DNA of 64,000 bases from contig NC_134398.1 in assembly GCF_050003625.1 (NCBI RefSeq), positions 115,668,145 through 115,732,144 on the forward strand, written 5' to 3'. Position 1 is the first letter of the stretch. Every line of letters starts with the position of its first letter. The notes under the pieces were generated by a model that made no database searches, had not been told where the DNA came from, and was given only the letters and a program-made list of their open reading frames with translations. Source of the stretch: Haematobia irritans (lineage: Eukaryota > Arthropoda > Insecta > Diptera > Muscidae). Below, in pieces: positions 5,701 through 59,196 of the stretch. Both the position numbers and the translations under genes were made by a program.

Positions 5701-6207
5701 TGTGAACTAAAAATATTTCATTGGGGAATTTTTTACCAACAATTATTAACCATAGGAATTGTCAGTAAGAAATTGCTATCCACTTTCAAGTTCATTTTTC
5801 GTAAAAAAATATTTTCTCATACAAAAAAATCTTATGGTAAATTGCACTTATTATTTAGAAAATACTTTACATTTCACAAGTAGTTTTATAGCATAACAAA
5901 CGAATTTTTAACTACCAGTTAAGAATTTTTTTAAGGAAATGTCCATCGTATTTTGTAGGCCATGAACTAAACGATTGCTACTTAGAATTTGTAAAATTTC
6001 CTTTCGAGTAGTTAATTTTCGTTGAAGATACGAAAAATGAACTAAAATTCTGGAAAATTCTTGTAATAAATTATTGTAAAAATCTTCTTAAATTTACGAG
6101 ACACTTTTTTTTCTGTGTATTCTCCGCTACTTTGGCTCGGAACCAAAACCAGAATTTAAAGTAAAGACAAAATCTTTGGAATCGGGCATGTGTGTTTTTT
6201 AGTGTAA
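2751..6207. mobile_element. H-family element, 5' incomplete, split by C1
   Basis: The flanks 2751-3019 and 6120-6207 match the H element at 16430-19507. Shared blocks include the run through 'aggatatgtttttcaatactttatttt' and the stretch 'cttgTAttctccgct', which is uninterrupted at 19406-19440. This uninterrupted paralogue shows that the C1 element 3020-6117 landed on a TA dinucleotide. No protein is encoded. Confidence 0.65.
3020..6117 (-). mobile_element. C-family DNA element, copy C1, with exon-like units
   Basis: The left end is CACTGAAAAAACAGTG and the right end is AGACACTTTTTTTTCTGTG (reverse complement CACAGAAAAAAAAGTG). TA flanks both sides (3018-3019 and 6118-6119). On the minus strand it holds repeated units of about 200 bp. 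Each has a splice-acceptor-like ttttag/tttcag and a donor-like gtaagt; on the plus strand the donors read cttac near 3675, 3884, 4072, 4275, 4493, 4663 and 4864. The units near 4275-4340 and 4663-4730 keep an ATG followed by M-D-S-G and SAYNLIEK. The 3' end keeps MRYVYLRKVEF. No transposase is seen, so it must be mobilised in trans. Confidence 0.8.
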
Positions 6208-7737
6208 TGTCGGAAGTTTCCCACAAGCTCCCGAACATTTTTGGAATATATGAAAAAAATATATTTATGTTAAAAAAAACTTTTTGGTGTTCGGTCGAAC
6301 CTTTTGCTTGTGCGTTGATGGCTATAACGATAATTGTCTGTTGATGACAATAACAGCTACGTAGCCGAGTGGATTACGATTCACCGTCCAGGCGAAAGGT
6401 AAAATTTACAAAATTTATAAAATCGAATAATTTCCTATACATTGTTTGCATTACAGAAAAAGGTGCAAACAAACTAAAAATGTGAGGGTCCAATTAGCCA
6501 GAAAATATTTTTTTTTTGAGTTAGTAAGTAAGATCTCAATTTTCTTTGGGAGAAAATGCTTCCAAGCAAATAATATTTTTTGGCTCAAAGTGCTTCCAAA
6601 CATATAATATGTTCTCATAAAACAAACATCATACACCGAAAAAAAAGTTTACTATTTTTTACGGAAAATGAACTAACCCATAGTAAGAATGACCATGATT
6701 TGGCGCTAAAGATTTTTTCACCTAGATAAGTTCATGATTTTCTTATAAATTAGTTCATGTATTGCATCGTATTTTAGTTTATTATTACTATGCTGTGGGA
6801 AGAATATACTTAAACTCATTCAAAATATTCCTGCTATCCGGAAAAATGAACAATTTTTTGGGAAATCTGTATTAAGAAATTTGTTTGAAATAAACTGTTT
6901 GTCAGTACAATTTTCAAAAATATAGAGAAATTGAGGAATCAAAGGTACAACAAGCATTTATACAACTAAGAAATTTTTCGTGTAAAACAAGTCAATTTTC
7001 TATAACAACCAGTATTTTATTTCAAAAAATTATTATTATAATACACAAAACTATGGCTTATGATATACAATAAAGGAAATATTTTTATTCGTACGTTGGA
7101 TGCAGTTACTTGCCTGTAGTTAATAATTGCTTCTTCAAAAGAGTAATATTCTATGTTATTACGACTAAACTAATTAGTTTAAATTTCCATGTTTTCTATC
7201 CATATGAACGATATATGTGGCATAAGTTGCTATATTCATTGAATTGTTTTCCATTTTCATCGATTTTGGCTAACTTTTGTTGGGCGGATTTGTCTTATAA
7301 GCATCTGAAATTGCAAAGTTATACAAAATATAAGAAAAATATTATCAAATTCTATCGTACATATTGATTTTTAACTTACGGTTTTCAAGAGTATTTCCTA
7401 GAGCCAATAAGGATATCAGCTTAGTTAGCATTAAACAGTAAGAATATTCAAAAAAATTACCATTACAAGACCTGTCTACCTGCAAGTGACAATTATTTTT
7501 AATAAATTGAAACAATTATTTTTAATAAATTGAAATTTTGGTTTTATTAAAAACGGACAAAATACCGTTTATAGAAAAACTTACCACATTGAAAAATCCA
7601 TTCAGTAGGTACATTATTGGAATCATATCCATGGACTAATGGGACGTTTTTGAAATTATTCTCAGAATATAGTTGAAATAAAAAATATTATAAAATTATA
7701 CATAATTTCCACTTGTCAGTATAGCATTTAGTATTTA

Positions 7738-7955
7738 AGGTGGATATTAAGTTCGAGTTTAGCGGCTAAAATCGCAATTTTCATGATAAGTTTTTTCTAA
7801 TAATTCATTATAAAAAAATAATCTTTATAAAAAACTTGGTTTGGGCTATTCTCCACCAAATTATATTTAAATTTGTATCGAAGACGTATAATTTTATACT
7901 TTTCTTAGTGATTTGTTTTTAATTTTAGCGGCTAAACTCGAACTTAGTACTCACC
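7738..7955. mobile_element. MITE with 34-bp inverted ends (M family)
   Basis: The left end AGGTGGATATTAAGTTCGAG continues into tttagcggctaaaa. The right end read in reverse is AGGTGAGTACTAAGTTCGAG plus tttagccgctaaaa. The element is about 218 bp with no coding capacity. A second copy lies at 35804-35919, flanked by tta on both sides. That would fit a 3-bp TWA duplication as in PIF/Harbinger, but the flanks here are tta and gta, so the superfamily is only a guess. Confidence 0.7.
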
Positions 7956-9048
7956 TGTAGGAATTGCTGTAACATAAAAAATATAGACTCAAAAAACTGG
8001 CTGCATCTCCAAGATGTATAATAAATATAGATCATCCTATTACCACTCATGTTGTATATTTTTTATGTAAATCAATTAAAAATCCGCACTAATTTTAAAC
8101 TATTGACAGAAATATACAGTTTATTAATCTGTTATTTGTTTTTTTTTTTATCAATAAAAAGCGTTTTTGATTTCTCTAACATCACATCATTCACTTCTCA
8201 GTTTCTAAAATGTTTCGAAATAAATGTATTTTCATTAATAAACACCAATACCGCACGTACAATTTTGCAAAATTAAATCCACACGTGCACTTCATAAATG
8301 CACCAACAGAACTGAATGCAGCAATAAAACTCAAAGACATAAATAGTCATAAAGGATACATACCTGCAGTAAAGAAAAACAACTCCACACACACGATCCC
8401 TTTCTGATCTCGCTATTGCAAGAAAACAACTCTCACCACAAAACATAACATACCAACAACACACAACGGACATTCCATTGTCTCTAGAATCAAAACAACC
8501 ACACGCTCACAAAAAATCGCTTCTGTAACATATACTCCCAAACATATTTTGCTTCAAGCATATACATTGTTGGCTATTGCCCAAACATTTATATGTTTGA
8601 TCTCTTCCAATATATAATATGTTTGAAAGCAAATTGGTCTAAACAATATATGTTTGGGTAGTCAATTTCCAAACATTTTGTATTTTTGCATCCAAATTCA
8701 ATAATGTTGTCTTCCAAAAAACAATATGTTATTATGTGAACATATAATATGTTTGGAAGCATTTTGCACCCAAAAATATTATATGCTTAAAAAAATTCTC
8801 CCAAACAATATTGTGCTCAAAATTTTATTCATTTATTTATATATTTACAATCATAATGAATTATGAAAATAAACAGGTAATATAGGTGCTAACAACATAG
8901 GTTTTTGATCTGAATGCTCAAAATTTTGTTTCTGCCCAATTGTATATTCCCCCACATCTTTCTCACTTCCACGAGATTTTTTAGTTCTTAGCACCTTTTT
9001 CTGTAATACAAACATTGTAGAAGAAATTATTCAATTGTATGATTTTTT

Positions 9049-10928
9049 ATACCCTCCATCATAGGATGGGGGTATATTAACTTTGTCATTCCGTTTGTAA
9101 CACATCGAAATATTGCTCTAAGACCCCATAAAGTATATATATTCTGGGTCGTGGTGAAATTCTGAGTCGATCTAAGCATGTCCGTCCGTCCGTCCGTCTG
9201 TTGAAATCACGCTAACTTCCGAACGAAACAAGCTATCGACTTGAAACTTGGCACAAGTAGTTGTTATCGATGTAGGTCGGATGGTATTGAAAATGGGCCA
9301 TATCGGTCCACTTTTACGTATAGCCCCCATATAAAGGGACCCTCAGATTTGGCTTGTGGAGCCTCTAACAGAAGCATATTTCATCCGATCCGGCTGAAAT
9401 TTGGTACATGGTGTTGGTATATGGTCTCTAACAACCATGCAAAAATTGGTCCATATCGGTCCATAATTATATATAGCCCCCCTATAAACCGATCCCCAGA
9501 TTTGGCTTGTGGAGCCTCTAAGAGAGGCATATTTAATACGATCCGGCTGAAATTTGGTACATGATGTTAGTATATGGTCTCTAACAATCATGCAAAAATT
9601 GGTCGACATCGGTCCATAATTATATATAGCCCCCATATAAACCGATCCCCAGATTTGGCTTGCGGAGCCTCAAAGAGAAGCAAATTTCATCCGATCCAGC
9701 TGAAATTTGGTACATGATGTTGGTATATGGTCTCTAACAACCATGCAAAAATTGGTCCACATCGGTTCATAATTATATATAGCCCCCATATAAACCGATC
9801 CCCAGATTTGGTTTGTGGAGCCTCTAAGAGAAGCATATTTCATCCGATCCGGCTGAAATTTGGTGCATGGTGTTGGTATATGGTCTCTAACAATCATGCA
9901 AAAATTGGTCCACATCGGTCCATAATTATATATAGCCCCCATATAAACCGATCTCCAGATTTGGCTTGCGAAGCCTCAAAGAGAAGCAAATTGCATCTGA
10001 TCCGGCTGAAATTTGGTACATGGTATTGGTATATGGTCTCTAGCAACCGTGCAAAAATTGGTCCACATCGGTCCATAATTATATATAGCGCACATATAAA
10101 CCGATCCCCAGATTTGGGTTGCGGAGCCTCTAAGAGAAGCGAATTTCATCCGATCTGGCTCAAATTTGGTACATGGTATTGGTATATGGTCTCTAGCAAC
10201 CGTTCAAAAATTGGTCCATATCGGTCCATAATTATATATAGCCCCCATATAAAACGTTCTCCAGATTTGACCTCCGGAGCCTCTTGGAGGAGCAAAATTC
10301 ATCCGATCCGGTTTGAATTAGGAACGTGGTGTTAGTATATGGTCGCTAACAACCATACCAAAATTGGTCCAATCACACAAAAATTGGTCCATATCGGTTC
10401 ATAATCATGGTTGCCACTAGAGCCAAAAATAATCTACCAAAATTTTATTTCTATAGAAAATTTTGTCAAAATTTTATTTCTAGAGAAAATTTTGTTAAAA
10501 TTTTATTCGGTTCATAATAAAATTTTCATCATTGTCAAAATTTTATTTCTATAGAAAATTTTGTTCAAAAGTTTATTTATATAGAAAATGTTGTTAAAAT
10601 TTTATTTCTGTAGACATTTTTGTCAAAATTTTCTTTCTATAGAAAATCGAGCCAAAAATAATCTACCAAGATTTTATTTCTATAGAAAATTTTGTCAAAA
10701 GTTTATTTCTATAGAAAATTTTGTTAAAATTTTATTTCTGTAGACATTTTTGTCAAAATTTTCTTTCTATAGAAAATTTTGTGAACATTTTTATTTCTAT
10801 AGAAAAGTTTGTGAAAATTTTATTTCTATAGCAAATTTTGTTAAAATTTTATTTCTGTAGAAAAGTTTGTCAAAATTTTATGTCTACTTTGTCAAACTGA
10901 ATTATATACGTATTGGATCGATCTTTTT
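9049..10928. mobile_element. F1 tandem-repeat element, first copy, truncated (F1a)
   Basis: It starts ATACCCTCCATCATAGG, which forms a palindrome with the following gatgggggtat. Next comes a gtccgtccgtcc run (9180), then about six units of about 153 bp ('ggtccataattatatatagc' at about 9461, 9613, 9767, 9920, 10073 and 10226), then an A/T block built on tttctatagaaa. It stops at gatcgatcttttt and is joined directly to a second copy beginning ATACCC at 10929. The period is a multiple of 3, so long frames open on both strands. They are repeat artefacts, not genes. Confidence 0.8.
10435..10905. repeat. A/T-rich array built on aaattttatttctatagaaa
   Basis: Units of about 28-30 bp, each around the palindrome tttctatagaaa and separated by attttgtc/attttgtt, run through this stretch. 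The same array recurs in the other F1 copies at about 12285-12730, 26490-26945, 29780-30045 and 59530-59855, on either strand. It marks one side of every fuller F1 copy. No function is evident. Confidence 0.85.
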
Positions 10929-12974
10929 ATACCCTCCATCATAGGATGGGGGTATATTAACTTTGTCATTCCGTTTGTAACACATCGAAATATTGCTCTA
11001 AGACCCCATAAAGTATATATATTCTGGGTCGTGGTGAAATTCTGAGTCGATCTAAGCGTGTCCGTCCGTCCGTCCGTCCGTCTGTTGAAATCACGCAAAC
11101 TTCCGAATGAAACAAGCTATCGACTTGAAACTTGGCACAAGTAGTTGTTATCGATGTACGTCGGATGGTATTGAAAATGGGCCATATCGGTCCACTTTTA
11201 CGTATAGCCCCTATATAAAGGGACCCTCAGATTTGGCTTGTGGAGCCTCTAACAGAAGCATATTTCATCCGATCCGGCTGAAATTTGGTACATGGTGTTG
11301 GTATATGGTCTCTAACAACCATGCAAAAATTGGTCCATATCGGTCCATAATTATATATAGCCCCCATATAAACCGATCCCCAGATTTGGCTTGTGGAGCC
11401 TCTAAGAGAGGCATATTTAATACGATCCGGCTGAAATTTGGTACATGATGTAAGTATATGGTCTCTAACAATCGTGCAAAAATTGGTCGACATCGGTCCA
11501 TAATTATATATAGCCTCAAAGAGAAGCAAATTTCATCCGATCCAGCTGAAATTTGGTACATGATGTTGGTATATGGTCTCTAACAACCATGCAAAAATTG
11601 GTCCACATCGGTTCATAATTATATATAGCCCCCATATAAACCGATCCCCAGATTTGGTTTGTGGAGCCTCTAAGAGAAGCATATTTCATCCGATCCGGCT
11701 GAAATTTGGTGCATGGTGTTGGTATATGGTCTCTAACAATCATGCAAAAATTGGTCCACATCGGTCCATAATTATATATAGCCCCCATATAAACCGATCT
11801 CCAGATTTGGCTTGCGAAGCCTCAAAGAGAAGCAAATTGCATCTGATCCGGCTGAAATTTGGTACATGGTATTGGTATATGGTCTCTAGCAACCGTGCAA
11901 AAATTGGTCCACATCGGTCCATAATTATATATAGCGCACATATAAACCGATCCCCAGATTTGGGTTGCGGAGCCTCTAAGAGAAGCAAATTTCATCCGAT
12001 CTGGCTCAAATTTGGTACATGGTATTGGTATATGGTCTCTAGCAACCGTTCAAAAATTGGTCCATATCGGTCCATAATTATATATAGCCCCCATATAAAA
12101 CGTTCTCCAGATTTGACCTCCGGAGCCTCTTGGAGGAGCAAAATTCATCCGATCCGGTTTGAATTAGGAACGTGGTGTTAGTATATGGTCGCTAACAACC
12201 ATACCAAAATTGGTCCAATCACACAAAAATTGGTCCATATCGGTTCATAATCATGGTTGCCACTAGAGCCAAAAATAATCTACCAAAATTTTATTTCTAT
12301 AGAAAATTTTGTCAAAATTTTATTTCTAGAGAAAATTTTGTTAAAATTTTATTCGGTTCATAATAAAATTTTCATCATTGTCAAAATTTTATTTCTATAG
12401 AAAATTTTGTTCAAAAGTTTATTTATATAGAAAATGTTGTTAAAATTTTATTTCTGTAGACATTTTTGTCAAAATTTTCTTTCTATAGAAAATCGAGCCA
12501 AAAATAATCTACCAAGATTTTATTTCTATAGAAAATTTTGTCAAAAGTTTATTTCTATAGAAAATTTTGTTAAAATTTTATTTCTGTAGACATTTTTGTC
12601 AAAATTTTCTTTCTATAGAAAATTTTGTGAAAATTTTTATTTCTATAGAAAAGTTTGTGAAAATTTTATTTCTATAGAAAATTTTGTTAAAATTTTATTT
12701 CTGTAGAAAATTTTGTCAAAATTTTATGTCTACTTTGTCAAACTGAATTATATACGTATTGGATCGATCTTTTTTGATTTAATATATACCACGTATGGAC
12801 TTACATACAATTTAGAAGATGGTGTTAGGAGGTTTTAAGATACCTTGCCATCGGCAAGCGTTACCGCAACTTAAGTAATTCGATTGTGGGTGGCAGTGTT
12901 TAGAAGAAGTTTCTACGCAATCCATGATGGAGGGTACATAAGCTTCGGCCTGGCCGAACTTACGGCCGTATATA

Positions 12975-13907
12975 AAGGGTGATTCTTTTGAGGTTAGGAT
13001 TTTCATGCATTAGTATTTGACAGATCACGTGGGATTTCAGACATAGTGTCAAAGAGAAAGATGCTCAGTATGCTTTGACATTTCATCATGAATAGACTTA
13101 CTAACGAGCAACGCTTGCAAATCATTGAATTTTATTACCAAAATCAGTGGCAGAAAATCCGCTTTTTTATCGACAAATTTTGTTCAGCGATGAGGCTCAT
13201 TTCTGGTTGAATGGCTACGTAAATAAGCAAAATTGCCGCATTTGGAGTGAAGAGCAACCAGAAGCCGTTCAAGAACTGCCCATGCATCCCGAAAAATGCA
13301 CTGTTTGGTGTGGTTTGTACGCTGGTGGAATCATTGGACCGTATTTTTTCAAAGATGCTGTTGGACGCAACGTTACGGTGAATGGCGATCGCTATCGTTC
13401 GATGCTAACAAACTTTTTGTTGCCAAAAATGGAAGAACTGAACTTGGTTGACATGTGGTTTCAACAAGATGGCGCTACATGCCACACAGCTCGCGATTCT
13501 ATGGCCATTTTGAGGGAAAACTTCGGAGAACAATTCATCTCAAGAAATGGACCGGTAAGTTGGCCAACAAGATCATGCGATTTGACGCCTTTAGACTATT
13601 TTTTGTGGGGCTACGTCAAGTCTAAAGTCTACAGAAATAAGCCAGCAACTATTCCAGCTTTGGAAGACAACATTTCCGAAGAAATTCGGGCTATTCCGGC
13701 CGAAATGCTCGAAAAAGTTGCCCAAAATTGGACTTTCCGAATGGACCACCTAAGACGCAGCCGCGGTCAACATTTAAATGAAATTATCTTCAAAAAGTAA
13801 ATGTCATGGACCAATCTAACGTTTCAAATAAAGAACCGATGAGATTTTGCAAATTTTATGCGTTTTTTTTAAAAAAAAAGTTATCAAGCTCTTAACAAAT
13901 CACCCTT
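12975..13907 (+). mobile_element. DD41D mariner-family transposon, internally deleted
   Basis: The left end is AAGGGTGATTCTTTTGAGG. The right end read in reverse is AAGGGTGATTTGTTAAGAGC. TA lies on both sides (12973-12974 and 13908-13909). F1c at 27181-27193 shows the same site without the insertion (ccgtatatacttg), so ends and duplication are proven within the window. At 933 bp it is shorter than an autonomous element of this type. The missing part is the middle of the DNA-binding region. Confidence 0.93.
13088..13800 (+). pseudogene. DD41D mariner transposase, deleted and frameshifted
   Basis: The original start codon at 13088 opens MNRLTNEQRLQIIEFYYQNQ, the first helix of the paired-type DNA-binding domain. 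A deletion then joins it, one frame off, to the catalytic domain, which is open from 13147 to the stop at 13800. In that frame the three acidic residues are in FSDEAHF (D15), QQDGATCH (D108) and LTPLDYFLWG (D150). The last two are 41 residues apart, the DD41D signature of rosa-like mariners. The catalytic frame is intact, but the protein lacks most of its DNA-binding half and cannot be made in one frame. Transposases of this family cut and paste DNA at TA sites. Confidence 0.93.
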
Positions 13908-15131
13908 TACTTGTTTTATTTTAATTTTACCTTTTGCCGGACGGGGATTCGAACAGCGGACCACACAGTTTGTAAGGATCAAAGAAGTAGCTGATCAATT
14001 GCCCAAGGAAAAATAAAATGTTAATTTTGTAATAACAAGCAACAACCACCAACTTAATTCAATATCGCTCCCTGTTAAATAGCGCTCCAAGCTACTAAAC
14101 ACATATATGTTTATAGGCTATTTCTAAATTAATATATGTTTGCATCCAAGCATATTATATTTAAAAACATTTTATGTCCCAAACATAATATGTTCTAACA
14201 TATTAACATATATGTCCCAAACATGTTATGCTAGTTTATGAACATTATATGCATGCACTCAAAAATATTGTGTTTAAAAATTTGTGTTCCAAACATATAA
14301 TGTTTATAGCCAAACATATGAAAAACAGTCTTTTTCATCCGTGCAACAACAGCATAAATGACGCAATAACAAACACAAACAATCATACGAGATATACACA
14401 AAATGTCTCTAAAAACTCACTCACATGATGCAATGATTTCATTACTTTCTTCTCACTTCATTTTCCAGTAGCATGTTTATTGATTAGTTGGAATTCTATC
14501 CATAAGTTAAGGTAAACTATATACCAAATCTATGAGGAATATATAAAAAATTATATACACCCGTCAAGGATTAATTAACTACTTTTTATTCTACTTTATC
14601 TAAAATTTTCAATGTGAAGAAAAACACTCCAACTTATAATAAAAAGGGAAATAATCTGTAGGTAGCCATCATACGAATCGGTAATGTCGTTAAGTTAATT
14701 TTTACTACAAAATTTTTTTCATACAAAATTTTTTCTTAGTAAATTGTCCACATTTCGTAGTAAGATTTTTATATTGCCCATGTATTTTTATAATGGAATC
14801 AACGATGCATTAACTACTGTGTTGGAAATTTATTTAAGGAAAAATCCTTCCCATTTCGTAGTTAGTGAACTAAAAAACATTTACTGAATTTTTATAAGTT
14901 TTCCTTTAGCTAAGCTAATTTTCGTTGTGGTTACGAAAAATGAACTATATTACAGTAAATTTGTTGAACTATGTGGAAGTTAAAATGGTCCTTAAATTTA
15001 CAAGACACTTTTTTTTCTGTGTAATGTTTCGGCAATATCTAAGAATATATGTGCTTCTTGCAAAATATGTTTGGAACATATGTTAGAGAAGCGATTTTTT
15101 GAGGGTGTAGACTCCATATGAATTTAGAACT

Positions 15132-16816: not shown

Positions 16817-19280
16817 CACTGAAAAAACAGTGAACCCTTTTCCATTGCAAAATGAACTAAACTGTAGTAATATTGACCATGATTTAGCCCTTAAGATTTT
16901 TTTCAACTTATCTAGTTTATAATTCTCTTAAATTTTAGTTCATCTATAACATTGTAGTTTAGTTCATTTTTACAACACCATAAGATTTATATACCCATAC
17001 CAAGTTAAAAAGTCAGTATTATTTTGGTTTACTTGCTTATTTTTTGGGAAACCCGATAATAAAAATTGGTTAACAGTCTCTTTAAAATGTCGACAACTAA
17101 ACTATTTTTAAATCAATCATTCCACAGTACAGAGAAATTAAATAATTAAAGGAACAACAAACCGTTTTAAAATTATGAAAATTTTCATACATTAAAATTA
17201 AACTTTCTTTAAACAAAAGTACTTTATTATAAAAACTTATGATGAAAGTTCTTAATACAATGTTTTTTGTGAATAAAAAATTTTAAAAAATTTTAAAAAA
17301 TTTTTTAATATAAAACTTACCAATTCTCTATTAAATTGTATGCTGAGGGGAAATATAAAAAGTTGTCCAAATTTATTTGGGTTACTCTGAAATTAAATAT
17401 TTATTTTTTACATTAAATAAAATTATTAAATAGGTTTTCAAAAAATCTAATGAAAAAAATAATAATATGCTTAAAAAAAAACAAATATTCTTGATAACCC
17501 TAGACAGTCATTATTCGTCAAAATGACGACACATAATTTAATTTTCGATTTAAAATGCATTTTAGTCTATTGGGAAATGGTAAATTTAAATTATACTAAT
17601 TCGACCGTTTTATGAATTTTTGTTTTATACTACATAAAAAAAAAAATGAATAAGAAAATAAATTGAAGTTTGTTCACTTTTTCGCTCACGATGAAAATTA
17701 TAGCGTCTTGAAATCAGCCGTACTCAAAATGACAAAGGATGACGTTAATGTACAAAAAATAAGGATGACTGTCGAGGGTTAAAAGAAAGTTAAAGAATCC
17801 TTACCAATTCACTATTAAATTACAGGCAAAGGAGTACTAAATATGTGTCCAAAATTTTAAGGGTTATTCTGAAATTAAATATTTGTTTTTACATTAAAAA
17901 TATTACATTGGTTTCCAACACATTTGATTAAAGAAATACTAATATAAGGTATTAAAAACCTGTAATTTTGATGACAAAAAGGTCACAAAAACGTAAATAT
18001 TCTAGTTGAAATAAAGCCAATTTTTAAAAGAAAACTTACCAATTCTCTATTTTTTAAATTTGTTCGAATCCATCTGGAGTTGCTCTGAAATTAAATATTG
18101 TTTTTACAACAAAGAAAAAATTAAACTGGTTTCCAAAAAAATTAATTAACAAATAATAATATACATAAAAAATATTATTTTTAAAAGAAAGCCATATTAA
18201 AAAAATACTTACCAATTTATGAATAACTATACGATAAAATATAACAAAAATTTTCCAAATTCATCTGGAATTGAATATTAATTTTTTACATAGAATAATA
18301 AAAATTTCAATACACTTTCAATTTCAACATATTTTCCTAAATATTCTTAATAACTTTTTTTTTAAACTACCGATAAAATATTATAAAAGGTTTAATAAAC
18401 AAACACCAATATATGTCTCAAAAATCCAAAATATTCCATGCCTTTATATTCCCTTGTTGCATACATGCTTAAAAGATGCAACAGCCCACGCCAACGCCAA
18501 CTATACAACTGAAGCATGAACGAAACCAAGCAAAGCCAAAACATTCCTACAACAACAAAAACACATGTGCCTTTATTGAAAACAACACCTCATCCAGCCA
18601 AATAAACCATCCACGAATAACAAACACACACACACAAACCACTAAATGAACAAAAATAAAAACAACCCCACATTCCACTATGTTGATAAAGATCTCCGTA
18701 CTATGCATTAGTTCATCGCATCTGCTGACAATTTACTCTAAGAATAATATTCGTAAAGGCACACTAGTTTATGAACGATGAAACATTTAACTTAAAATTT
18801 GCAAAATTTTCATGAAATGTTATCTACCATTTTTGACGAAAATGTCTATAAATTTAATTACATGTGAACTAAAAATATTTCATTGGGTAATTTTTTAGCA
18901 ACAATTATTAACTATAGGAATTGTCAGTAAGAAATTGCTATCCACTTTCAAGTTCATTTTTCGTAAAAAAATATTTTCTCGTACAAAAAAATCTTATAGT
19001 AAATTGCACTTATTATTTAGAAAATACTTTACATTTCACAAGTAGTTTTATAGCATGACAAACGAATTTTTAACTACCAGTTAAGAAATTTTTTAAGGAA
19101 ATTTCCATCGTATTTTGTAGGCCATGAACTAAACGATTGTTACTTAGAATTTGTAAAATTTCCTTTCGAGTAGTTAATTTTCGTTGAAGATACGAAAAAT
19201 GAACTAAAATTCTGGAAAATTCTTGTAATAAATTATTGTAAAAATCTTCTTAAATTTACGAGACACTTTTTTTTTCTGTG
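16817..19280 (-). mobile_element. C-family element, copy C2
   Basis: The ends are CACTGAAAAAACAGTGAACC and ACACTTTTTTTTTCTGTG. The flanking dinucleotides are CG and TG, a 2-bp duplication with one probable transition. The unbroken H sequence near 2850-2860 gives the empty site. Minus-strand exon-like units persist but are decayed: in the unit near 17320-17400 the ATG has become ATA, while FPSAYNLIEN and the gtaag donor remain. Part of the 3' exon region is deleted after 17280. A MITE sits at 17498-17778. Confidence 0.78.
17498..17778. mobile_element. piggyBac-like MITE, 281 bp, copy 1
   Basis: The ends are CCCTAGACAGTCAT and, in reverse, CCCTCGACAGTCAT, flanked by ataa (17494-17497) and ttaa (17779-17782). 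C1 has the uninserted site 'ctggTTAAaaga' near 4045. CCCTAG ends at a TTAA target are the hallmark of piggyBac. There is no open frame. Copy 2 at 32809-33089 has the same length, the same site and the same ataa change, so it moved with its host C element rather than inserting twice. Confidence 0.85.
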
Positions 19281-23453: not shown

Positions 23454-24283
23454 TACCTGTTATGTATTACAAATTTTGGGAGTTTGTACTTTTCTTTTGG
23501 TGTTAAAGAAAATGTTTTAAATTCAAAGATCATGCACAATGTTATATGTTTAATATGCACAGAAAAAAAGTGTCTCGTAAATTTAAGAAGATTTTTACAA
23601 TAATTTATTACAAGAATTTTCCAGAATTTTAGTTGATTTTTCGTATCTTTAACAAAAATTAACTACTCTAAAGGAAGTTTTACAAATTTTAAGTAGCAAT
23701 CGTTTAGTTCATAACCTACAAACTACGATGGAAATTTCCTTAAAAATTTTCTTAACTGGTAGTTAAAAATTCTTTCGTCATACTATAAAACTACTTATGA
23801 AATGTAAAATACTTTCTAAATAATAAGTGTAATTTACTATAAAGGGTTTTTGTATGAGAAAATATTTTTTTACGAAAATTGAACTTGAAAGCGGATAGCA
23901 ATTTCTTACTGGCAATGCCTATAGTTAATAATAGTTGGTGCAACATTTCTCAATGAAATATTTTTAGTTCACATGTAATTAAATTTATAGACATTTTCGT
24001 CAAAAATGGGTAGATATCATTTCATGAAGTTTTTGCTAATTTTAAGTTAAACATTTCATCGTTCTTATACTGACATGCATTTAAGAGTATTGTTTTTAGA
24101 GTAAATTGTGGACAGATGCGATGAACTAATGCATAGTATAGAGATCTTTCTCGTCAAAGTGGAATATGTTTTATGTAAAGATGATGTTACTTGAAATTTT
24201 TTGAGAGTGAGAGCATGCAATGCAATAATGAGAAATGGTAGCGAGTGATGGGGATGTTGTGTATATCTGAGCGTGGGGTTGTT

Positions 24284-27193
24284 ATACCCTCCATCATAGG
24301 ATGGGGGTATATTAACTTTGTCATTCCGTTTGTAACACATCGAAATATTGCTCTAAGACCCCATAAAGTATATATATTCTGGGTCGTGGTGAAATTCTGA
24401 GTCGATCTAAGCATGTCCGTCCGTCCGTCCGTCTGTCCGTCCGTCTGTTGAAATCACGCTAACTTCCGAACGAGCCACCGTGGTGCAATGGTTAGCATGC
24501 CCGCCTTGCATACACAAGGTCGTGGGTTCGATTCCTGCTACGACCGAACACCAAAAAGTTTTTCAGCGGTGGATTATCCCACCTCAGTAATGCTGGTGAC
24601 ATTTCTGAGGGTTTCAAAGCTTCTCTAAGTGGTTTCACTAGAATGTGGAACGCCGTTCGGACTCGGCTATAAAAAGGAGGTCCCTTGTCATTGAGCTTAA
24701 CATGGAATCGGGCAGCACTCAGTGATAAGAGAGAAGTTCACCACTGTGGTATCACAATGGACTGAATAGTCTAAGTGAGCCTGATATATCGGGCTGCCAC
24801 ATAACCTAACCTAACCTAACCTAACTTCCGAACGAAACAAGCTATCGACTTGAAACTTGGCACAAGTAGTTGTTATTGAGGTAGGTCGGATGGTATTGCA
24901 AATGGGCCATATCGGTCCACTTTTACGTATAGCCCCCATATAACGGACCCCAAAATTTGGCTTGCGAGGCCTCTAACAGAAGCATATTTCATCCGATCCG
25001 GCTGAAATTTGGTACATGGTGTTGGTATATGGTCTCTAACAACCATGCAAAAATTGGTCCATATCGGTCCATAATTATATATAGCCCCCATATAAACCGA
25101 TCCCCAGATTTGGCTTGTGGAGCCTCTAAGAGAAGCATATTTCATCCGATCCGGCTGAAATTTGGTACATGGTATTGGTTATGGTCTCTAACAATCATGC
25201 AAAAATTGGTCCACATCGGTCCATAATTATATATAGCCCCCATATAAACCGATTGGTTGGCTTGCGGAGCCTCAAAGAGAAGAAAATTTCATCCGATCCG
25301 GCTGAAATTTGGTATATGATGTCGGTATATGGTCTCTAACAACCATGCAAAAATTGGTCCATATCGGTCCTTAATTATATATAGCCCCCATATAAACCGA
25401 TCCCCAGATTTGGCTTGTGGAGCCTCTAAGAGAAGCATATTTCATCCGATCCGGCTGAAATTTGGTACATGGTATTGGTTATGGTCTCTAACAATCATGC
25501 AAAAATTGGTCCACATCGGTCCATAATTATATATAGCCCCCATATAAACCGATCCCCAGATTTGGTTTGTGGAGCCTCTAAGAGAAGCATATTTCATCCG
25601 ATCCGGCTGAAATTTGGTACATGGTGTTGGTATATGGTCTCTAACAACCATGCAAAAATTGGTCCATATCGGTCCTTAATTATATATTGCCCCCATATAA
25701 ACCGATCCCCAGATTTGGCTTGTGGAGCCTCTAAGAGAAGCATATTTCATCCGATCCGGCTGAAATTTGGTACATGGTGTTGGTATATGGTCTCTAACAA
25801 TCATGCAAAAATTGGTCCACATCGGTTCATAATTATATATAGCCCCCATATAAACCGATCTCCAGATTTGGCTTGCGAAGCCTCAAAGAGAAGCAAATTG
25901 CATCCGATCCGGCTGAAATTTGGTACATGGTATTGGTATATGGTCTCTAGCAACCGTGCAAAAATTGGTCCACATCGGTCCATAATTATATATAGCGCAC
26001 ATATAAACCGATCCCCAGATTTGGGTTGCGGAGCCTCTAAGAGAAGCAAATTTCATCCGATCCGGCTCAAATTTGGTACATGGTATTGGTATATGGTCTC
26101 TAATAATCATGCAAAACTTGGTCCACATCGGTTCATAATTATATATAGCCCCCATATAAACCGATCCCCAGATTTGGGTTGCGGAGCCTCTAAGAGAAGC
26201 AAATTTCATCCGATCCGGCTCAAATTTGGTACATGGTATTGGTATATGGTCTCTAGCAACCGTTCAAAAATTGGTCCATATCGGTCCATAATTATATATA
26301 GCCCCCATATAAAACGTTCTCCAGATTTGACCTCCGGAGCCTCTTGGAGGAGCAAAATTCGTCCGATCCGGTTCGAATTAGGAACGTGGTGTTAGTATAT
26401 GGTCGCTAACAGCCATACCAAAATTGGTCCTATCACACAAAAATTGGTCCATATCGGTTCATAATCATGGTTGCCACTAGAGCCAAAAATAATCTACCAA
26501 AATTTTATTTCTATAGAAAATTTTGTCAAAATTTTATTTCTAGAGAAAATTTTGTTAAAATTTTATTCGGTTCATAATAAAATTTTCATCATTGTCAAAA
26601 TTTTATTTCTATAGAAAATGTTGTTCAAAAGTTTATTTATATAGAAAATGTTGTTAAAATTTTATTTCTGTAGACATTTTTGTCAAAATTTTCTTTCTAT
26701 AGAAAATCGAGCCAAAAATAATCTACCAAGATTTTATAATCTATAGAAAATTTTGTCAAAAGTTTATTTCTATAGAAAATTTTGTTAAAATTTTATTTCT
26801 GTAGACATTTTTGTCAAAATTTTCTTTCTATAGAAAATTTTGTGAAAATTTTTATTTCTATAGAAAAGTTTGTGAAAATTTTATTTCTATAGAAAATTTT
26901 GTTAAAATTTTATTTCTGTAGAAAATTTTGTCAAAATTTTATGTCTACTTTGTCAAACTGAATTATATACGTATTGGATCGATCTTTTTTGATTTAATAT
27001 ATACCACGTATGGACTTACATACAATTTAGAAGATGGTGTTAGGAGGTTTTAAGATACCTTGTCATCGGCAAGCGTTACCGCAACTTAAGTAATTCGATT
27101 GTGGGTGGTAGTGTTTAGAAGAAGTTTCTACGCAATCCATGATGGAGGGTACATAAGCTTCGCCCTGGCCGAACTTACGGCCGTATATACTTG
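24284..27193. mobile_element. F1 element (F1c), complete, holding a SINE
   Basis: It runs from ATACCCTCC to TATACTTG. Comparison with the C1/C3 empty site shows two additional T, that is a TT duplication. About ten 153-bp units follow the gtccgtcc run, then the tttctatagaaa array (26490-26945) and the terminal palindromes ttcgccctggccgaa (one mismatch) and tacggccgta. A plus-strand frame of 308 codons (25469-26395) is a product of the 3n period. Its peptide unit, with NNHAKIGPHRSIII, repeats every 51 residues. Confidence 0.83.
24474..24820 (+). mobile_element. tRNA-derived SINE, full length
   Basis: The 5' head is tRNA-like, with an A box TGGTGCAATGG (24481-24491) and a B box GGTTCGATTCC (24525-24535), so it should be transcribed by RNA polymerase III. 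A tRNA-unrelated body of about 200 bp follows, then a 3' part (gtggtatcacaatggactga... to gggctgccac) and four or more TAACC repeats. The target ctaacttccgaacg is duplicated around it inside F1c; F1b, without the SINE, reads straight through. The 3' part matches the LINE at 51720-52260, the likely source of its retrotransposition machinery. Confidence 0.9.
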
Positions 27194-27656
27194 TTTTTAT
27201 TTTTGTTCTTTCAGTGGTTTGTGTGTGTGTGTTTATTATTCGTGAATGGTTTATTTGTCTGGATGAGGTGTTGTCTTCAAGGAAGGCACATGTGTTTTTG
27301 TTGTTGTAGGTATGTTTTGGTTTTGCTTGGTTTTGTTTGGCATGCTTCAGTTGTGTAGTTGGCGTTGGCGTGGGCTGTTGCACCTTTTTAGCAAGTATGT
27401 AACAAGGGAATACAAAGGTATGGAATATTTTGTTTTTTTTGAGACATATATTGGTGTTTGTTTATTAAAACTTTTAAATGAAAGTTATTAATATTTTATC
27501 GATGAGTTGTACAATGGTGATGATCGGTAGCTTAGAAAAAAGTTATTAAGAATGTTCAATATTTAGGAAAAAATGCTGAAATGGAAAGTATATTGAAATT
27601 GTTTTATCTAATTTAATTTTTATTATTCAATGTAAAAAATAAATATTCAATTTCAG

Positions 27657-28774
27657 AGTAACTCCAGATGAATTTGGAAAATTGTTTGTTACACCTCAGC
27701 GTATAGTTTAATCATAAATAGGTAAGTGCTCTTTTTTCAATGTGGTTTTCTTTTAAAAAATAATATTCTTTATGTATATTATTATTCGCTAATTATTATT
27801 ATTTTTTTTTTTTAAGTTTAAGTTTCATGTTTTTCTTTGTTGTAAAAAATATTTAATTTAAGAGCAACCCCAGATGGATTCGGGCAAATTTTTATATTTC
27901 TCCTCAGCGTATAATTTAATAGAGAAGTGGTAAGTTTTCTTTTAAAAATTGGCTTTCTTTTCACTAGAATATTTACGTTTTTATGACCTTTTTAGTATCA
28001 AAATTACAGGTTTTAAACCTTATTTTAATATTACTTTAATCAAATATTTTTGGAAATCAATTTAATATGTTTAATGTAAAAAACAAATATTTAATTTCAG
28101 AATAACAATTTGGAAACATTTTTATGAATTGGTAAGCTTTCTTTAACATTCTTTTAACCAGAATATTTATTTTATTTATTTCTTAATTAGATTTTTTGGA
28201 AACTAATTTAATTTTTTTTATTTAATGTAAAAAATAAATATTTAATTTCAGAGTAACCCCAAAGGAATTTCGATAACTTTTGAACCTCAGCGTACAATGT
28301 AATAGAGAATTGGTAAGTTTTATATTAAAACTTTGGCTTTCTTGTACAAGAATATTTATTGTATTATGTCCTTCACATCGATAACAACACAATTTTATGA
28401 GATAATATATTACTTAATTCATTATTTCTCTAATTGTTTCAGGTACAAACTTTATGAGGTACGTTTATCTAAGAAAAGTTGAATTCCTTACACCATTTAA
28501 TAAAATGCCCCCAAATATGGTAAGTTACAAGCTAATTTAAAGAGCTAAAAAATTATATTTTATTACATGTTAATTTTTAACAATTTTCATTATTCCTTCC
28601 ATTTTTTTCAGCAAGATATGTGAAAAATATACTTACGATGAATAAAAAACTAAGGAAAAGTCAAAATGTCCAAAAAGCGAGTTAAAATAAACTACTTTCT
28701 TGTTCCACGTGGTCATAATTTTTATTCACAAAAACATTGTATTAAGAACTTTCATCATAAGTTTTTATAATAAA
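27657..28774 (+). other. Exon-like array with splice signals in C4
   Basis: Six units follow acceptor-like ends, and the first five have donors. U1 is 27657-27721 (tttcag before, gtaagt after), U2 27863-27929 (tttaag, gtaagt), U3 28101-28131 (tttcag, gtaagc), U4 28252-28312 (tttcag, gtaagt), U5 28443-28519 (gtttcag, gtaagt), and U6 starts at 28612 after a T-run and cag. U2 has an ATG and encodes MDSGKFLYFSSAYNLIEK, ending in tg. Spliced to U5 it would read W-Y-K-L-Y-E-V and stop in U5. The other U5 frame, MRYVYLRKVEFLTPFNKM, runs into U6 and stops at caagatatgTGA. AATAAA lies at 28769-28774. U1, U3 and U4 are damaged here, but matching units in C1 are open. That these sites are used is inference. 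Confidence 0.6.
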
Positions 28775-29181
28775 GTACTTTTGCTTAAAGAAAGTTTAAT
28801 TTTATTGTATGAAAATTTTCATAATAGTAAAACGGTTTGTTGTTTCTTTAATTATTTAATTTCTCTGTACTGTGGAATGATTGATTTAAAAATAGTTTAG
28901 TCGTCGACATTTTAAAGAGACTGTTAACCAATCTTTATTATCGGGTTTCCCAAAAAATAAGCAAGTAAACCATAATAATACTGACTTTTTAACTTGGTAG
29001 GGGTATATATATCTTATGGTGTTGTAAAAATGAACTAAAATACAATGTTATAGATTAACTAAAATTTAAGAGAATTATAAACTAAACAAGTTGAAAAAAA
29101 TCTTAAGGGCTAAATCATGGTCAATATTACTACAGTTTAGTTCATTTTGCAATGGAAAAGGGTTCACTGTTTTTTTCAGTG

Positions 29182-31794: not shown

Positions 31795-34655
31795 CACTGA
31801 AAAAACAGTGAACCCATTTCCATTGCAAAATGAACTAAACTGTAGTAATATTGACCATGATTTAGCCCTTAAGATTTTTTTCAACTTGTCTAGTTTATAA
31901 TTCTCTTAAATTTTAGTTCATCTATAACATTGTATTTTAGTTCATTTTTACAACACCATAAGATTTATATACCCCTACCAAGTTAAAAAGTCAATATTCT
32001 TTTGGTTTACTTGCTTATTTTGTGGGAAACCCGATAATAAAAATTGGTTAACAGTCTCTTTAAAATGTCGACGACTAAACTATTTTTAAATCAATCATTC
32101 CGTAGTACAGAGAAATTAAATAATTAAATGAACAACAAACCGTTTTGCTATTATGAAAATTTTCATACATTAAAATTAAACTTTCTTTAAGCAAAAGTAC
32201 TTTATTATAAAAACTTATGATGAAAGTTCTTAATACAATGTTTTTTGTGAATAAAAATTATGACCACGTGGAACAGAGAGTAGTTCATTTGAACTCGCTG
32301 TTTGGACATTTTGACTTATCCTTTTTTTATTCATCGTAGGTAATTTTTTCACATATCTTGCTGGAAAAAATGGAAGCAATAATGAAAATTGTTAAAAATT
32401 AACACCATGTAATGAAATATAAGTGTTTAATTCTTTATATTATCTTGTATCATATTTGGGGGCATTTTATCAAATGGTGTAAGGAATTCAACTTTTCTTT
32501 GGAAAACGTATCTCATAAAATTTGTACCTGAAACAATTAGAGAAATAATGAAGTATTTTATATAAACTCATAAAACTGTGTTGTTATCGATATTCTAGTT
32601 GAAAGAAAGACAAAGTTTTAATATAAAACTTACCAATTCTCTATTAAATTGTACGCTGAGGGGAAATATAAAAAGTTGTCCAAATGTATTTGGGTTACTC
32701 TGAAATTAAATATATATTTTTTACATTAATTAAAATTATTAAATAGGTTTCCAAAAAATCTAACGAAAAAAATAATAATATGCATAAAAAACCAACTATT
32801 CTTGATAACCCTAGATAGTCATCATTCGTCAAAATGACGACACGTGATTTCATTTTCGATTTAAAATGCACTTTAGTTTATTGGGAAATGGTAAATTTAA
32901 GTTATACTAATTCGACGGTTTTATGAATTTTTGTTTCATACTACTTAAAACTAAATTGAATAAGAAAATAAATTCAAGTTTGGTTCACTTTTTCGCTCAC
33001 GATGAAAATTATAGCGTCTTGAAATCAGCCGTAGTCAAAATGAAGAAGGATGACGTTAATGTACAAAAAATAAGGATGACTGTCCAGGGTTAAAAGAAAG
33101 TTAAAGAATCCTTACCAATTCACTATTAAATTACAGGCAAAGGAGTACTAAAAATTTGTCCAAATTTTTAAGGGGTTATTCTGAAATTAAATATTTTTTT
33201 TACATTAAAAATATTACATTGGTTTCCAAAAAATTTATTAAAGAAATACTAAAATAAGGTATTAAAAACCTGTAATTTTGATGATAAAAAGGTCATAAAA
33301 ACGTAAATATTCTAGTCGAAAAAAGGCAATTTTTAAAAGAAAACTTACCAATTCTCTATTTTTTAAATTTGTTCGAATCCATCTGGAGTTGCTCTGAAAT
33401 TAAATATTGTTTTTACAACAAAGAAAACCATTAAACTGATTTACAAACAAAAATAATTAACAAATAATAATATAGATACAAAATATTATTTTTAAAAGAA
33501 AGTCATATTAAAAAATACTTACCAATTTATAAATAAACTATACGCTGAGATATAACAAAAATTTTCCAAATTTATCTGGAATTGAATATTAATTTTTTAC
33601 ATTGAATAATAAAAATTTCAATGCACTTTCAATTTCAACATATTTTCCTAAATATTCTTAATAACTTTTTTCTAAACTACCGATAAAATATTAATAACTT
33701 TCATTTAAAAGGTTTAATAAACAACAATATATGTCTCAAAAATCCAAAATATTCCATGACTTTATATTCCCTTTTCCCTTGTTGCATATCTTCTTAAAAG
33801 ATGCAACAGCCCACGCCAACGCCAACTATGCAACTGAAGCATGCCAAACAAAACCAAGCAAAGCCAAAACATTCCTACAACAACAAAAACACATGTGCCT
33901 TTATTGAAAACAACACATCATCTAGCCAAATAAACCATCCGCAAATAACAAACACACACGCAAACCACTAAATGAACAAAAATAAAAACAACCCCACGCT
34001 CATGTATACACAACAAAACTCAAGTAACATCATCTTTACATTAATCACATTCCACTATGCCGATAAAGATCTCTGTACTATGCACTAGTTCATCGCATCT
34101 GCTGACAATTTACTCTGAGAACAATATTCGTAAAGGCACACCAGTGTATGAACGATGAAACGTTTAACTTAAAATTTACAAATTTTTCATGAAATGTTAT
34201 CTACCATTTTTGACGAAAATGTCTATAAATTTAATTAAATGTGAACTAAAAATATTTCATTGGGTAATTTTTTACCAACAATTATTAACTATAGGAATTG
34301 TCAGTAAAAAATTGCTATCCACTTTCAAGTTCATTTTTCGTAAAAAAATATTTTCTCATACAAAAAAATTTTATAGTAAATTGCACTTATTATTTAGAAA
34401 ATACTTTACATTTCACAAGTAGTTTTATAGCATGACAAACGAATTTTTAACTACTAGTTAAGAAATTTTTTAAGGAAATTTCCATCGTATTTTGTAGGCC
34501 ATGAACTAAACGATTGCTACTTAGAATTTGTAAAATTTCCTTTCGAGTAATTAGTTTTCGTTGAAGATACGAAAAATGAACTAAAATTCTGGAAAATTCT
34601 TGTAATAAATTATTGTAAAAATCTTCTTAAATTTACGAGACACTTTTTTTCTGTG
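31795..34655 (-). mobile_element. C-family element, copy C3
   Basis: The ends are CACTGAAAAAACAGTGAACC and GACACTTTTTTTCTGTG, with TA on both sides (31793-31794 and 34656-34657). On the minus strand the 3' exon (32450-32535) encodes MRYVFQRKVEFLTPFDKM, close to C1 and C4, and is followed by the conserved caagatatgTGA. Its donor is lost (atacaag instead of gtaagt). The exon unit near 32630-32710 keeps FPSAYNLIEN but has ATA for ATG, as in C2. C2 and C3 therefore share an ancestor, as does the MITE at 32809-33089. Confidence 0.82.
32809..33089. mobile_element. piggyBac-like MITE, 281 bp, copy 2
   Basis: The ends are CCCTAGATAGTCAT and, in reverse, CCCTGGACAGTCAT, flanked by ataa (32805-32808) and ttaa (33090-33093). 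Same length and same site as copy 1. C1 and C4 lack it (ggttaaaag and cttttaacc respectively). Confidence 0.85.
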
Positions 34656-42370: not shown

Positions 42371-43175
<805 letters not shown>

Positions 43176-47268: not shown

Positions 47269-47330
47269 TACATAGATCGCCGTAAATAAATTCAAAACAT
47301 GAACAATTTACTAATGAAGAATTTTGTACT

Positions 47331-47643: not shown

Positions 47644-47814
47644 TAGTGCATTGCTAAAGTTTTGAAGTACCAAATTTGGCATACAATATGAAAAACATAA
47701 AAATATGACAATTCGAGATATTCCAGTGGAAAAACTAATCTCTTGCGCACAAGGATTTCTGCCTTTAAAGAAAGAATGCAAGTTTTGCTTCCTATTTCAT
47801 TTCTAAATGTCGTT

Positions 47815-48104: not shown

Positions 48105-49077
48105 CACTGAAAGAAGAGTTTCCTTTTATACGAACTACACCTGCCATCATAATAGTGGTTTAGTTCACATATTCGAATCCCTGTTAATGTCAGTTAAGCC
48201 ATTTGGAATTTTAATCACTTTTATATTTATCCTTCCCCTACTATTTCATTGCTCAGCTGAATGTGTATGAATGAATTGGCAAGTGAACAAGGCGGCGGTT
48301 GGAAGTTATTTCATTTATTCATAATCAAATTAGATTGTTCTTAATTATTATTTTTAATAATTCCAGCTCATTGGAAGAATTACAAATATTTATTTTTATA
48401 TTAATTATTTACATTAAGTGGTACATTTGGGTAAATTGTTTAGTTTATTTACATTTCGACTGAATACATCTGTAACAATATTCGGTTGTATGTTTTTGTA
48501 TGCACAGTGGATTTTGCTCTTTATTTGTTTTGAAAGATTTCCTAAGGCCATTATAGAGAGGGTGGTATTAACATCATGACCATTCTATGAAATTCTCACC
48601 TACCTAATCTGTTGCGAAATTCAGCAAGATAGCATTCAAGTAATTAAATTTAATAAATTCTGCAAAGAAAATGTTATTGCTGTATTCACTGCCCATTAGG
48701 GGCCAATGAAATTGACAATAAAATAAGTAATTTGAAAACTTGCGAAAATAATTACGTTTATCAAAAGGTCACACTTTATGTGACAATTCTATGTAGCTTT
48801 CCTTTTCCCATGCAGCGAATTTTAAATGGTCAATTTCTTTCTTTTTTTAATAGTCAGTGCATAATTTGTAAAGAATTGAAATGGTGAGTAAATGGAGTAC
48901 TTCAGATTCGTGAAAAACTTAAACATAACAAGAAAGTAAAGTCCAAAGTACAATGCCATAGATGAACTAAAATTTAAGAGAATTTTAAACTAGACAATCT
49001 TAAGGACTAAATCATGGTCAATATTATTACAGTTTAGTTAATTTTGCAATGGAAAAGGGTTCACTGTTTTTTCAGTG
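48105..49077. mobile_element. Possible composite C-type element (C5)
   Basis: The left end is CACTGAAAGAAGAG and the right end ggttcactgttttttCAGTG, with CA on both sides (48103-48104 and 49078-49079). The last 130 bases (48949-49077) are the same as the C4 right end, and the first 80 resemble C6. The middle 750 bases match no C copy. It may be a C element with foreign filling, or two unrelated ends meeting by chance. Confidence 0.45.

Positions 49078-58252: not shown

Positions 58253-59196
<944 letters not shown>

What the first reader, a model, noticed from the sequence alone, without database searches (positions are those of the whole stretch)
27657..28774. A DNA transposon carrying a tandem array of duplicated start exons
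Seen: in C4 six exon-like units follow one another. Five are followed by gtaag[tc], and the acceptors read tttcag except for one tttaag. C1, C2 and C3 hold the same units on the minus strand. In C1 and C4 the better units contain an ATG and encode M-[DN]-x3-F-L, then SAYNLIE[NK] and a split W codon at the donor (for example MDSGKFLYFSSAYNLIEK in C4 and MNFNNFLTSAYNLIEN in C1). C2 and C3 share ATA for ATG. The last two exons, the stop caagatatgTGA and AATAAA are also shared. Inference: a captured gene with its first coding exon multiplied, carried by a non-autonomous CAC...GTG element. Joining two array units in series would shift frame and hit a stop, so the units would be alternatives.
Basis: partly seen in the sequence, partly recalled or inferred. 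Interest (0 to 1): 0.86.

Follow-up and report, generated by a model that had tools for sequence, protein, structure and literature searches.

The report
Fly transposon with exon-shaped repeat array
A small mobile DNA element in a fly-like genome carries a row of repeated, exon-shaped units whose splice-site signals have stayed alike while the would-be protein code is broken in most units, so it looks more like a spliced, mainly non-coding cassette than a working gene with many start exons.

Summary
C4 spans 23558-29181 (with a nested insertion at about 24284-27190) and is one of four copies with both ends: CAC...GTG, 2-bp target duplications. It resembles a non-autonomous CACTA/CMC-type transposon; no transposase was seen. 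Inside are four homologous ~200-bp units (six in C1) and two unrelated exon-like blocks (28443-28519; from 28612). All 18 units have a GGTAAG donor, the only six-column block without change in the unit alignment, and splice-boundary columns change less than exon bodies: modest support for splicing, past or present. Coding start exons are poorly supported: 4 of 18 units are open from ATG to donor, exons diverge like flanks, and a unit joined to the next exon stops after 12 codons, not at caagatatgTGA, which is in another frame. That other frame has a slight synonymous excess, so coding in the last exons is not excluded. Unit-unit joining gives TGA at 11 of 11 junctions tested. A cousin element, D1, has a different exon-like interior. 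Most likely a mobile, spliced, largely non-coding exon array. RNA and genome-wide copies could not be examined.

The parts
23558..29181 (+). C4, whole element (CACAGAAAAAAA...TTTTTTTCAGTG), flanked by TG/TG
24284..27190 (.). nested insertion in C4 (ends from alignment, approximate), rich in a 153-bp tandem repeat; absent from C1-C3 at this place
27657..27721 (+). unit U1 of C4 (exon-shaped; stop in the frame set by the donor)
27863..27929 (+). unit U2 of C4, open MDSGKFLYFSSAYNLIEK then split W; acceptor tttaag
28101..28131 (+). unit U3 of C4 (short, 31 nt)
28252..28312 (+). unit U4 of C4 (ATG lost, stop inside)
28443..28519 (+). U5, exon-like block unrelated to the units; the frame coming from a unit ends in TGA after 12 codons
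28612..28646 (+). U6, start of last exon-like block with caagatatgTGA and AATAAA
28719..29181 (+). 3' terminal part, the slowest of the three element parts measured as flanks (32 changes in 462 columns); partly shared with D1 and with 48943-49077
3020..6117 (-). C1, 3098 bp, flanked by TA/TA; six units (extra U1b-U2b pair)
16817..19280 (-). C2, 2464 bp, flanked by CA/CG; four units, U5 and U6 deleted
31795..34655 (-). C3, 2861 bp, flanked by TA/TA; four units, U5 donor deleted
6634..15021 (-). D1, cousin element with related ends (left 330 bp ~71%, right ~420 bp ~65%), TA/TA flanks, nested insertions and a different exon-like interior
48943..49077 (+). isolated C-type right end

Best explanation
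C is a ~2.5-3.1-kb (without the nested insertion in C4) non-autonomous cut-and-paste DNA transposon with CAC...GTG ends and 2-bp target duplications (shown), most like the CACTA/EnSpm-Mirage-Chapaev group (inferred from ends and duplications only). Its interior holds a transcription-unit-like cassette: a tandem array of a ~200-bp exon-shaped unit, two further exon-like blocks and AATAAA (shown as sequence). The four-unit array existed before the copies separated and grew again in C1 by a two-unit duplication (shown by the unit tree). Splice donor and acceptor neighbourhoods stayed alike while exon bodies suffered substitutions and out-of-frame indels (shown), so the array was most likely spliced, or descends from a spliced transcript, with the units competing as alternative exons onto the shared downstream blocks (inferred). 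The product would be mainly non-coding RNA or, from a few units in C1 and C4, a peptide of 29-31 residues (inferred).
For: Ends and target duplications: identical 2-bp flanks in 4 of 5 elements (C1 TA, C3 TA, C4 TG, D1 TA; C2 is CA/CG); C1's right flank holds a repeat copy of C2's unfilled site, GACTTCCAGTAGAAATT, compared by eye. Donor GGTAAG unchanged in 18 of 18 units, the one zero-change block among 152 six-column blocks (5 blocks have at most one change); six columns drawn at random are all unchanged with P = 0.001. Donor, acceptor and acceptor-upstream columns 7 changes in 137 (0/24, 2/19, 5/94), against exon bodies 34 in 189 (Fisher P = 0.0006) and the left + 5' parts of the element 124 in 939 (P = 0.005). 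GGTAAG: 20 on the sense strand of C (18 units, 2 U5), 0 antisense, 7 elsewhere in the window on both strands. Coding not visibly kept in the units: exon divergence C4-C1 10/301 (U1-U5) against introns 28/641 and 5'+3' parts 36/1012; C3-C2 exons 10/238 against 5'+3' parts 29/846; 4 of 18 units open from ATG to donor.
Against: No RNA evidence and only four copies. Boundary columns do not change less than the element's own 3' end (7/137 against 32/462, P = 0.56), and the donor alone against flanks gives P = 0.06, so the constraint is modest; columns were treated as independent, and 5 of 24 acceptor columns were lost to gaps. Hints of coding: among the six units with a comparable open frame, the synonymous proportion exceeds the non-synonymous one in 9 of 15 pairs (not independent, about 9 synonymous sites each), and in the second frame of U5, which runs on to caagatatgTGA, C4 and C3 differ by 3 synonymous (13.8 sites) and 3 non-synonymous (61.2 sites) changes. 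The sequence just upstream of the acceptor is A-rich rather than pyrimidine-rich. C2 lacks U5 and U6 and C3 lacks the U5 donor, so a complete chain could come only from C1 or C4. No convincing 5' exon or promoter was identified, and no transposase.
Confidence: 0.54

Rival explanations
1. Plain internal satellite: the array is an ordinary tandem repeat inside a non-autonomous transposon; the splice-like motifs are a chance property of one ancestral unit, copied by duplication, and nothing was ever spliced.
For: The units are copies of one another, so the splice pair counts as about one event, P = 0.0015 for the strict motif and 0.0125 for a looser acceptor in 260 bp, before allowing for search; unit number varies (4 or 6) as in satellites; boundary columns are no slower than the element's 3' end; tandem repeats inside fly DNA transposons are known (Tetris, PMC4079207, passages).
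Against: The motif named beforehand is the only zero-change six-column block, boundaries change less than exon bodies, and the unique blocks U5 and U6 bring further donor and acceptor sites in the same orientation.
Confidence: 0.29
2. Captured gene with a multiplied first coding exon: alternative start exons give variant N termini on a shared C-terminal part.
For: Open 16-18-residue frames from ATG to the same split codon in 4 of 18 units; TGA on joining unit to unit at 11 of 11 junctions tested, as alternatives would need; synonymous proportion above non-synonymous in 9 of 15 unit pairs, and 3 synonymous against 3 non-synonymous changes in the second frame of U5.
Against: The joined frame ends after 12 codons in U5, and the claimed stop is in another frame; no lower divergence in exons; 14 of 18 units, among them all eight of C2 and C3, are not open from an ATG; no homologue.
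Confidence: 0.09
3. Transposase-binding or other DNA/RNA-protein sites: GGTAAG and the A/T block are repeated binding sites, splice likeness being incidental, as suggested for repeats of Galileo and Tetris.
For: Published precedent that internal repeats can carry transposase-binding sites (passage in PMC4079207); conserved blocks exist upstream of the acceptor too.
Against: GGTAAG occurs in C only in the units and U5 and never in the opposite orientation; the array is internal, not subterminal.
Confidence: 0.08

Closest known systems
CACTA/EnSpm-Mirage-Chapaev (CMC/CMCT) DNA transposons
   Same: CA...TG termini and 2-bp target duplications; PMC12730594 (passages) gives CA..TG ends in most cases and 2 to 5 bp duplications for the group, and PMC4298943 (passages) reports a 2-bp duplication for an animal CACTA-type element.
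   Different: No transposase seen in any copy here, so the superfamily cannot be proved; terminal repeats only about 16 bp; the animal element of PMC4298943 begins CCC, not CAC.
Pack-TYPE elements (Pack-CACTA, Pack-MULE)
   Same: Non-autonomous element whose interior looks gene-derived, with exons in it.
   Different: Described in plants (PMC8903248, start of abstract, passages); here no parent gene was found, and one exon-like unit is multiplied in tandem.
Tetris and Galileo, fly elements with internal tandem repeats
   Same: Internal ~200-bp AT-rich repeats of variable number inside a DNA transposon (Tetris: ~220 bp, three or four repeats in the left end of two alleles; passages).
   Different: Theirs lie inside long terminal inverted repeats; here the array is internal, one-directional and exon-shaped.
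Tandemly duplicated, mutually exclusive exons (recalled: Dscam1, para)
   Same: Serial units with acceptor and donor whose joining to each other would break the frame.
   Different: Those are coding exons under selection; here coding is lost in most units and the array is on a transposon.

Membership tests
CACTA/EnSpm-Mirage-Chapaev group | CA...TG termini | tested here: met
   CACAG.../...CAGTG in C1-C4; D1 starts CACAG and ends CGGTG
CACTA/EnSpm-Mirage-Chapaev group | 2 to 5 bp target duplication | tested here: met
   identical 2-bp flanks in 4 of 5; C2 CA/CG
CACTA/EnSpm-Mirage-Chapaev group | DDE transposase with C(2)C and H(3-4)H motifs | not testable with these tools
   stop-to-stop frames of C1, C3 and C4 are at most 97 codons (C2 not listed there, none of 120 or more in it); the autonomous partner was not available, as the own-genome search did not complete
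Tc1/mariner | TA target duplication | tested here: not met
   C4 is TG/TG and C2 CA/CG, though C1, C3 and D1 are TA/TA
Transib | 5-bp target duplication (recalled) | tested here: not met
   flanks agree for 2 bp only
Helitron | no terminal inverted repeats and no target duplication (recalled) | tested here: not met
   short inverted termini and 2-bp duplications
Pack-TYPE element | terminal inverted repeats and target duplication, without a transposase | tested here: met
Pack-TYPE element | coding DNA traceable to a host gene | tested here: inconclusive
   no protein match and no Pfam match above cutoff for the short frames; peptides too short for a fair search
Foldback/Tetris-like element | long terminal inverted repeats holding the tandem array | tested here: not met
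   array is single-orientation and internal

The most novel reading that the evidence does not exclude
A mobile DNA element family that maintains a row of competing, non-coding alternative exons: splice sites selected, protein frames not. This could be a splice decoy, a piRNA or other RNA precursor, or a device that keeps insertions in host introns tolerable or makes chimeric transcripts. The cousin D1 carries a different exon-like cassette in the same place.
Probability: 0.17. Interest if true: 0.75.

Novelty: new variant of a known kind. Interest (0 to 1): 0.42.

Why it matters
If the array is really spliced, one transposon family would scatter ready-made arrays of alternative exons through a fly genome, a natural source of new exons and of tandem exon arrays whose origin is usually unseen. 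It would also give replicate copies in which selection on splice sites can be separated from selection on coding. If it is only a satellite, it is a warning that tandem duplication can make one chance splice pair look like a designed exon array.

Tried and rejected
Captured gene with coding start exons: set aside as the main reading on frame, divergence and indel evidence; the codon counts are mixed and do not decide it. Homology of D1's interior to the units or to U5/U6: not detectable (unit profile best hit 19 nt at a donor, E 1.8; five alignments reached or exceeded by 32 to 80 of 100 shuffles). Transposase: stop-to-stop frames of 45 codons or more in C1, C3, C4, two stretches of D1 and 44548-49077 were listed and looked over; only seven stretches were sent to Pfam: no match above a curated cutoff; two weak ones, CENP-B_N in a minus-strand frame of 44548-49077 (E 0.023) and HIG_1_N in a C1 5' frame (E 0.049). 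Two longer minus-strand frames that cross C4's ends (23213-23662 and 27063-27461) were not searched. A joined D1 peptide against solved structures: best E 0.36. Subterminal binding repeats: no GGTAAG in C outside the units and U5. Rfam at gathering threshold and tRNA: none. DNA relatives in public collections: 0 exact matches to two patterns in viral contigs and 0 to one in prokaryote genome contigs; neither is expected to hold fly DNA. Literature: eight searches, some with capped lists (10 of 27, 10 of 1,075, 8 of 10), listed no paper whose title or abstract start describes this element; that speaks for those lists only. Papers: PMC8903248, PMC4079207, PMC4298943 and PMC12730594 seen as passages, the rest as listings.

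Limits of the counts. Units were first cut around GTAAG sites; the later profile search found exactly the same 18 places, but it was built from those units, and a unit that had lost its donor and most of its sequence would be missed. The unit tree has no support values in what I printed. Intron columns away from the boundaries are badly aligned and their high rates (51/136 and 80/212) were not used. In one search the C1 U2 exon was cut at an inner AG, and C1 U1b, whose acceptor is uncertain, at 75 nt. One search used 6 of 18 units, those with a comparable open frame.

Full report
What is there. Comparing the four C copies shows that they share not only the array but a further ~610-730 bp to the left: C1 6117-3020 (minus, 3098 bp), C2 19280-16817 (minus, 2464 bp), C3 34655-31795 (minus, 2861 bp), C4 23558-29181 (plus, 5624 bp because another repeat lies at about 24284-27190). 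The left end reads CACAGAAAAAAA..., the right end ...TTTTTTCAGTG. The two bases on either side agree in C1 (TA), C3 (TA), C4 (TG) and the cousin D1 (TA); in C2 they are CA and CG. C1's right flank happens to hold another copy of the sequence into which C2 went, and reads straight across the site (GACTTCCAGTAGAAATT), which fits a 2-bp CA duplication with one later change in C2 (compared by eye). CACWGAAAAAA occurs 15 times in the window against 0.29 expected, 8 of them at the ends of C1-C4 and others before unrelated sequence, so several families here seem to share this kind of end.

The array. A profile made from the units finds 18 places in the window and no others at E up to 10: six in C1, four each in C2, C3 and C4. 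The tree of units groups them by position (U1, U2, U3, U4) across copies, not by copy, so the four-unit array is older than the copies. C1 has an extra U1b-U2b pair; the first half of U1b resembles the intron before U3, which suggests an unequal exchange. U5 (28443-28519 in C4) and U6 (from 28612) were not found by the unit profile. C3 has lost the U5 donor through a small deletion and C2 has lost U5 and U6 altogether.

Is it exon-like beyond chance? All 15 TTTCAG-(20..110)-GGTAAG pairs of the window (13 units, 2 U5) lie on the sense strand of C; a random 260-bp stretch of the same composition holds one with P = 0.0015, or 0.0125 with a looser acceptor. Since the units are copies, this is weak by itself. 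Conservation says more. On the unit tree, built without the boundary columns, GGTAAG shows no change in 18 rows and is the only zero-change block among 152 blocks of six columns (5 blocks have at most one change); six random columns are all unchanged with P = 0.001. In the orthologous comparison of C1-C4, donor (0/24), acceptor (2/19, five columns lost to gaps) and the 24 columns before each acceptor (5/94) have 7 changes in 137 columns, exon bodies 34 in 189, the left and 5' parts of the element 124 in 939 (Fisher P = 0.0006 and 0.005). Against this: the 3' end of the element is as slow (32 in 462, P = 0.56), the donor alone against flanks gives P = 0.06, and columns are not fully independent. 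When U1 of C2 and C3 lost 11 bases including the acceptor, the deletion left ...AATTCCAG at the new edge, another acceptor-like end.

Is it coding? Probably not in the units; open for the last blocks. Exons U1-U5 differ between C4 and C1 at 10 of 301 positions, introns at 28 of 641, the 5' and 3' parts at 36 of 1012; between C3 and C2 exons at 10 of 238, the 5' and 3' parts at 29 of 846. In the frame set by the split codon at the donor, 4 of 18 units (C1 U2, U2b, U4; C4 U2) are open from a real ATG to the donor, leaving out three that hold only a 2- or 3-residue tail; 7 of 18 have no stop in that frame over the whole exon (for U1b of C1 the acceptor is uncertain and 75 nt were taken). Exon lengths break the frame: U2 is 67 nt in C4 and 45 in C2 and C3, U3 is 31 nt in C1 and C4 but 64 and 65 in C2 and C3. 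Among the six units with a comparable open frame, C4 U2 against C3 U4 gives 1 synonymous and 7 non-synonymous changes, but over all 15 pairs the synonymous proportion is the higher one in 9 and the lower in 6, with about nine synonymous sites per pair: undecided, and biased towards open units. A unit joined to U5 reads on for 12 codons to TGA (...YKLYEVRLSKKS*), giving 29-31 residues; in C1 the split codon becomes TGC. The second frame of U5 (TNFMRYVYLRKVEFLTPFNKMPPNM) runs on into caagatatgTGA (the TGA read by eye); there C4 and C3 differ by 3 synonymous and 3 non-synonymous changes over 13.8 and 61.2 sites, a slight hint of constraint that speaks against a wholly non-coding reading. No relative was found for the tested stretches, but these peptides are too short for the searches to weigh much.

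Cousin D1. A diverged element lies at 15021-6634 (minus): left 330 bp 71% alike, right ~420 bp 65% alike, TA on both flanks, split by 153-bp-repeat insertions and a mariner. Just before its right part the sense strand has three GTRAGT donors (7954, 7584, 7379) in 1.1 kb, 0.39 expected, P = 0.007, none antisense, with acceptor-like TTGCAG and TTTCAG sites and open stretches between. No likeness to C's units or U5/U6 was detectable. So two subfamilies with related ends carry different exon-like interiors in the same place and orientation. The stretch was picked after seeing it, so the P value is a guide only.

How it most likely works. Shown: an element with CAC...GTG ends and 2-bp duplications, an array older than the copies that grew again in C1, and splice boundaries more alike than exon bodies. 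Inferred: the array is or was transcribed from the left, each unit able to join to U5 and U6, serial joining being useless for coding because it makes TGA at once (11 of 11 junctions tested); the RNA is mainly non-coding now. Not known: promoter, 5' exon, transposase, function. The ends and duplications fit the CACTA/EnSpm-Mirage-Chapaev group as described in PMC12730594 (passages), but membership cannot be proved without a transposase; Tc1/mariner, Transib and Helitron each fail one feature. Closest in build is Tetris, with ~220-bp repeats of variable number, but inside long terminal inverted repeats (PMC4079207, passages); closest in idea are plant Pack-TYPE elements (PMC8903248, passages).

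Source. The window looks like a higher-fly genome by its repeats (recalled). Its mariner is 98% identical to a protein recorded from Haematobia irritans, but also 96% to one from Leptinotarsa and 100% over 92% of its length to an unnamed one, so this does not fix the species. The own-genome search was asked 15 times and never answered, so nothing here speaks for copies beyond the window.

Noticed in passing
6634-15021 (minus): D1, cousin of C with related ends, TA/TA flanks and exon-like blocks (donors at 7954, 7584 and 7379) without detectable likeness to C's, before its right end.
   Followed up: partly
24284-27190: Nested insertion in C4 rich in 153-bp tandem repeats and a 29-bp CAAAATTTTATTTCTATAGAAAATTTTGT repeat; similar arrays at 9290-12732, 29781-30978, 37964-39277 and 59535-60543.
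   Followed up: partly
about 32809-33089 (C3), matching place in C2: Insert in the U3-U4 intron with inverted ends CCCTGGACAGTCATC/GATGACTATCTAGGG at a TTAA-like site (counted by eye), looks like a piggyBac-type MITE (recalled family features); absent from C1 and C4.
   Followed up: partly
9290-12974: Two near-identical copies of a ~1.85-kb stretch in tandem (open frames at 9718 and 11564 almost the same).
   Followed up: no
13129-13800 (plus): Mariner/DD41D-like transposase stretch, 98% identical to a Haematobia irritans record and 96% to a Leptinotarsa record, which hints at horizontal spread.
   Followed up: partly
44548-49077: CACAGAAAAAA at 44548 and a C-type right end at 48943-49077; in between, on the minus strand, a frame with a weak CENP-B_N match (E 0.023, below cutoff).
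   Followed up: partly
42691-42943 and 58404-58741: Long, nearly pure (AT)n runs of about 126 and 169 units.
   Followed up: no
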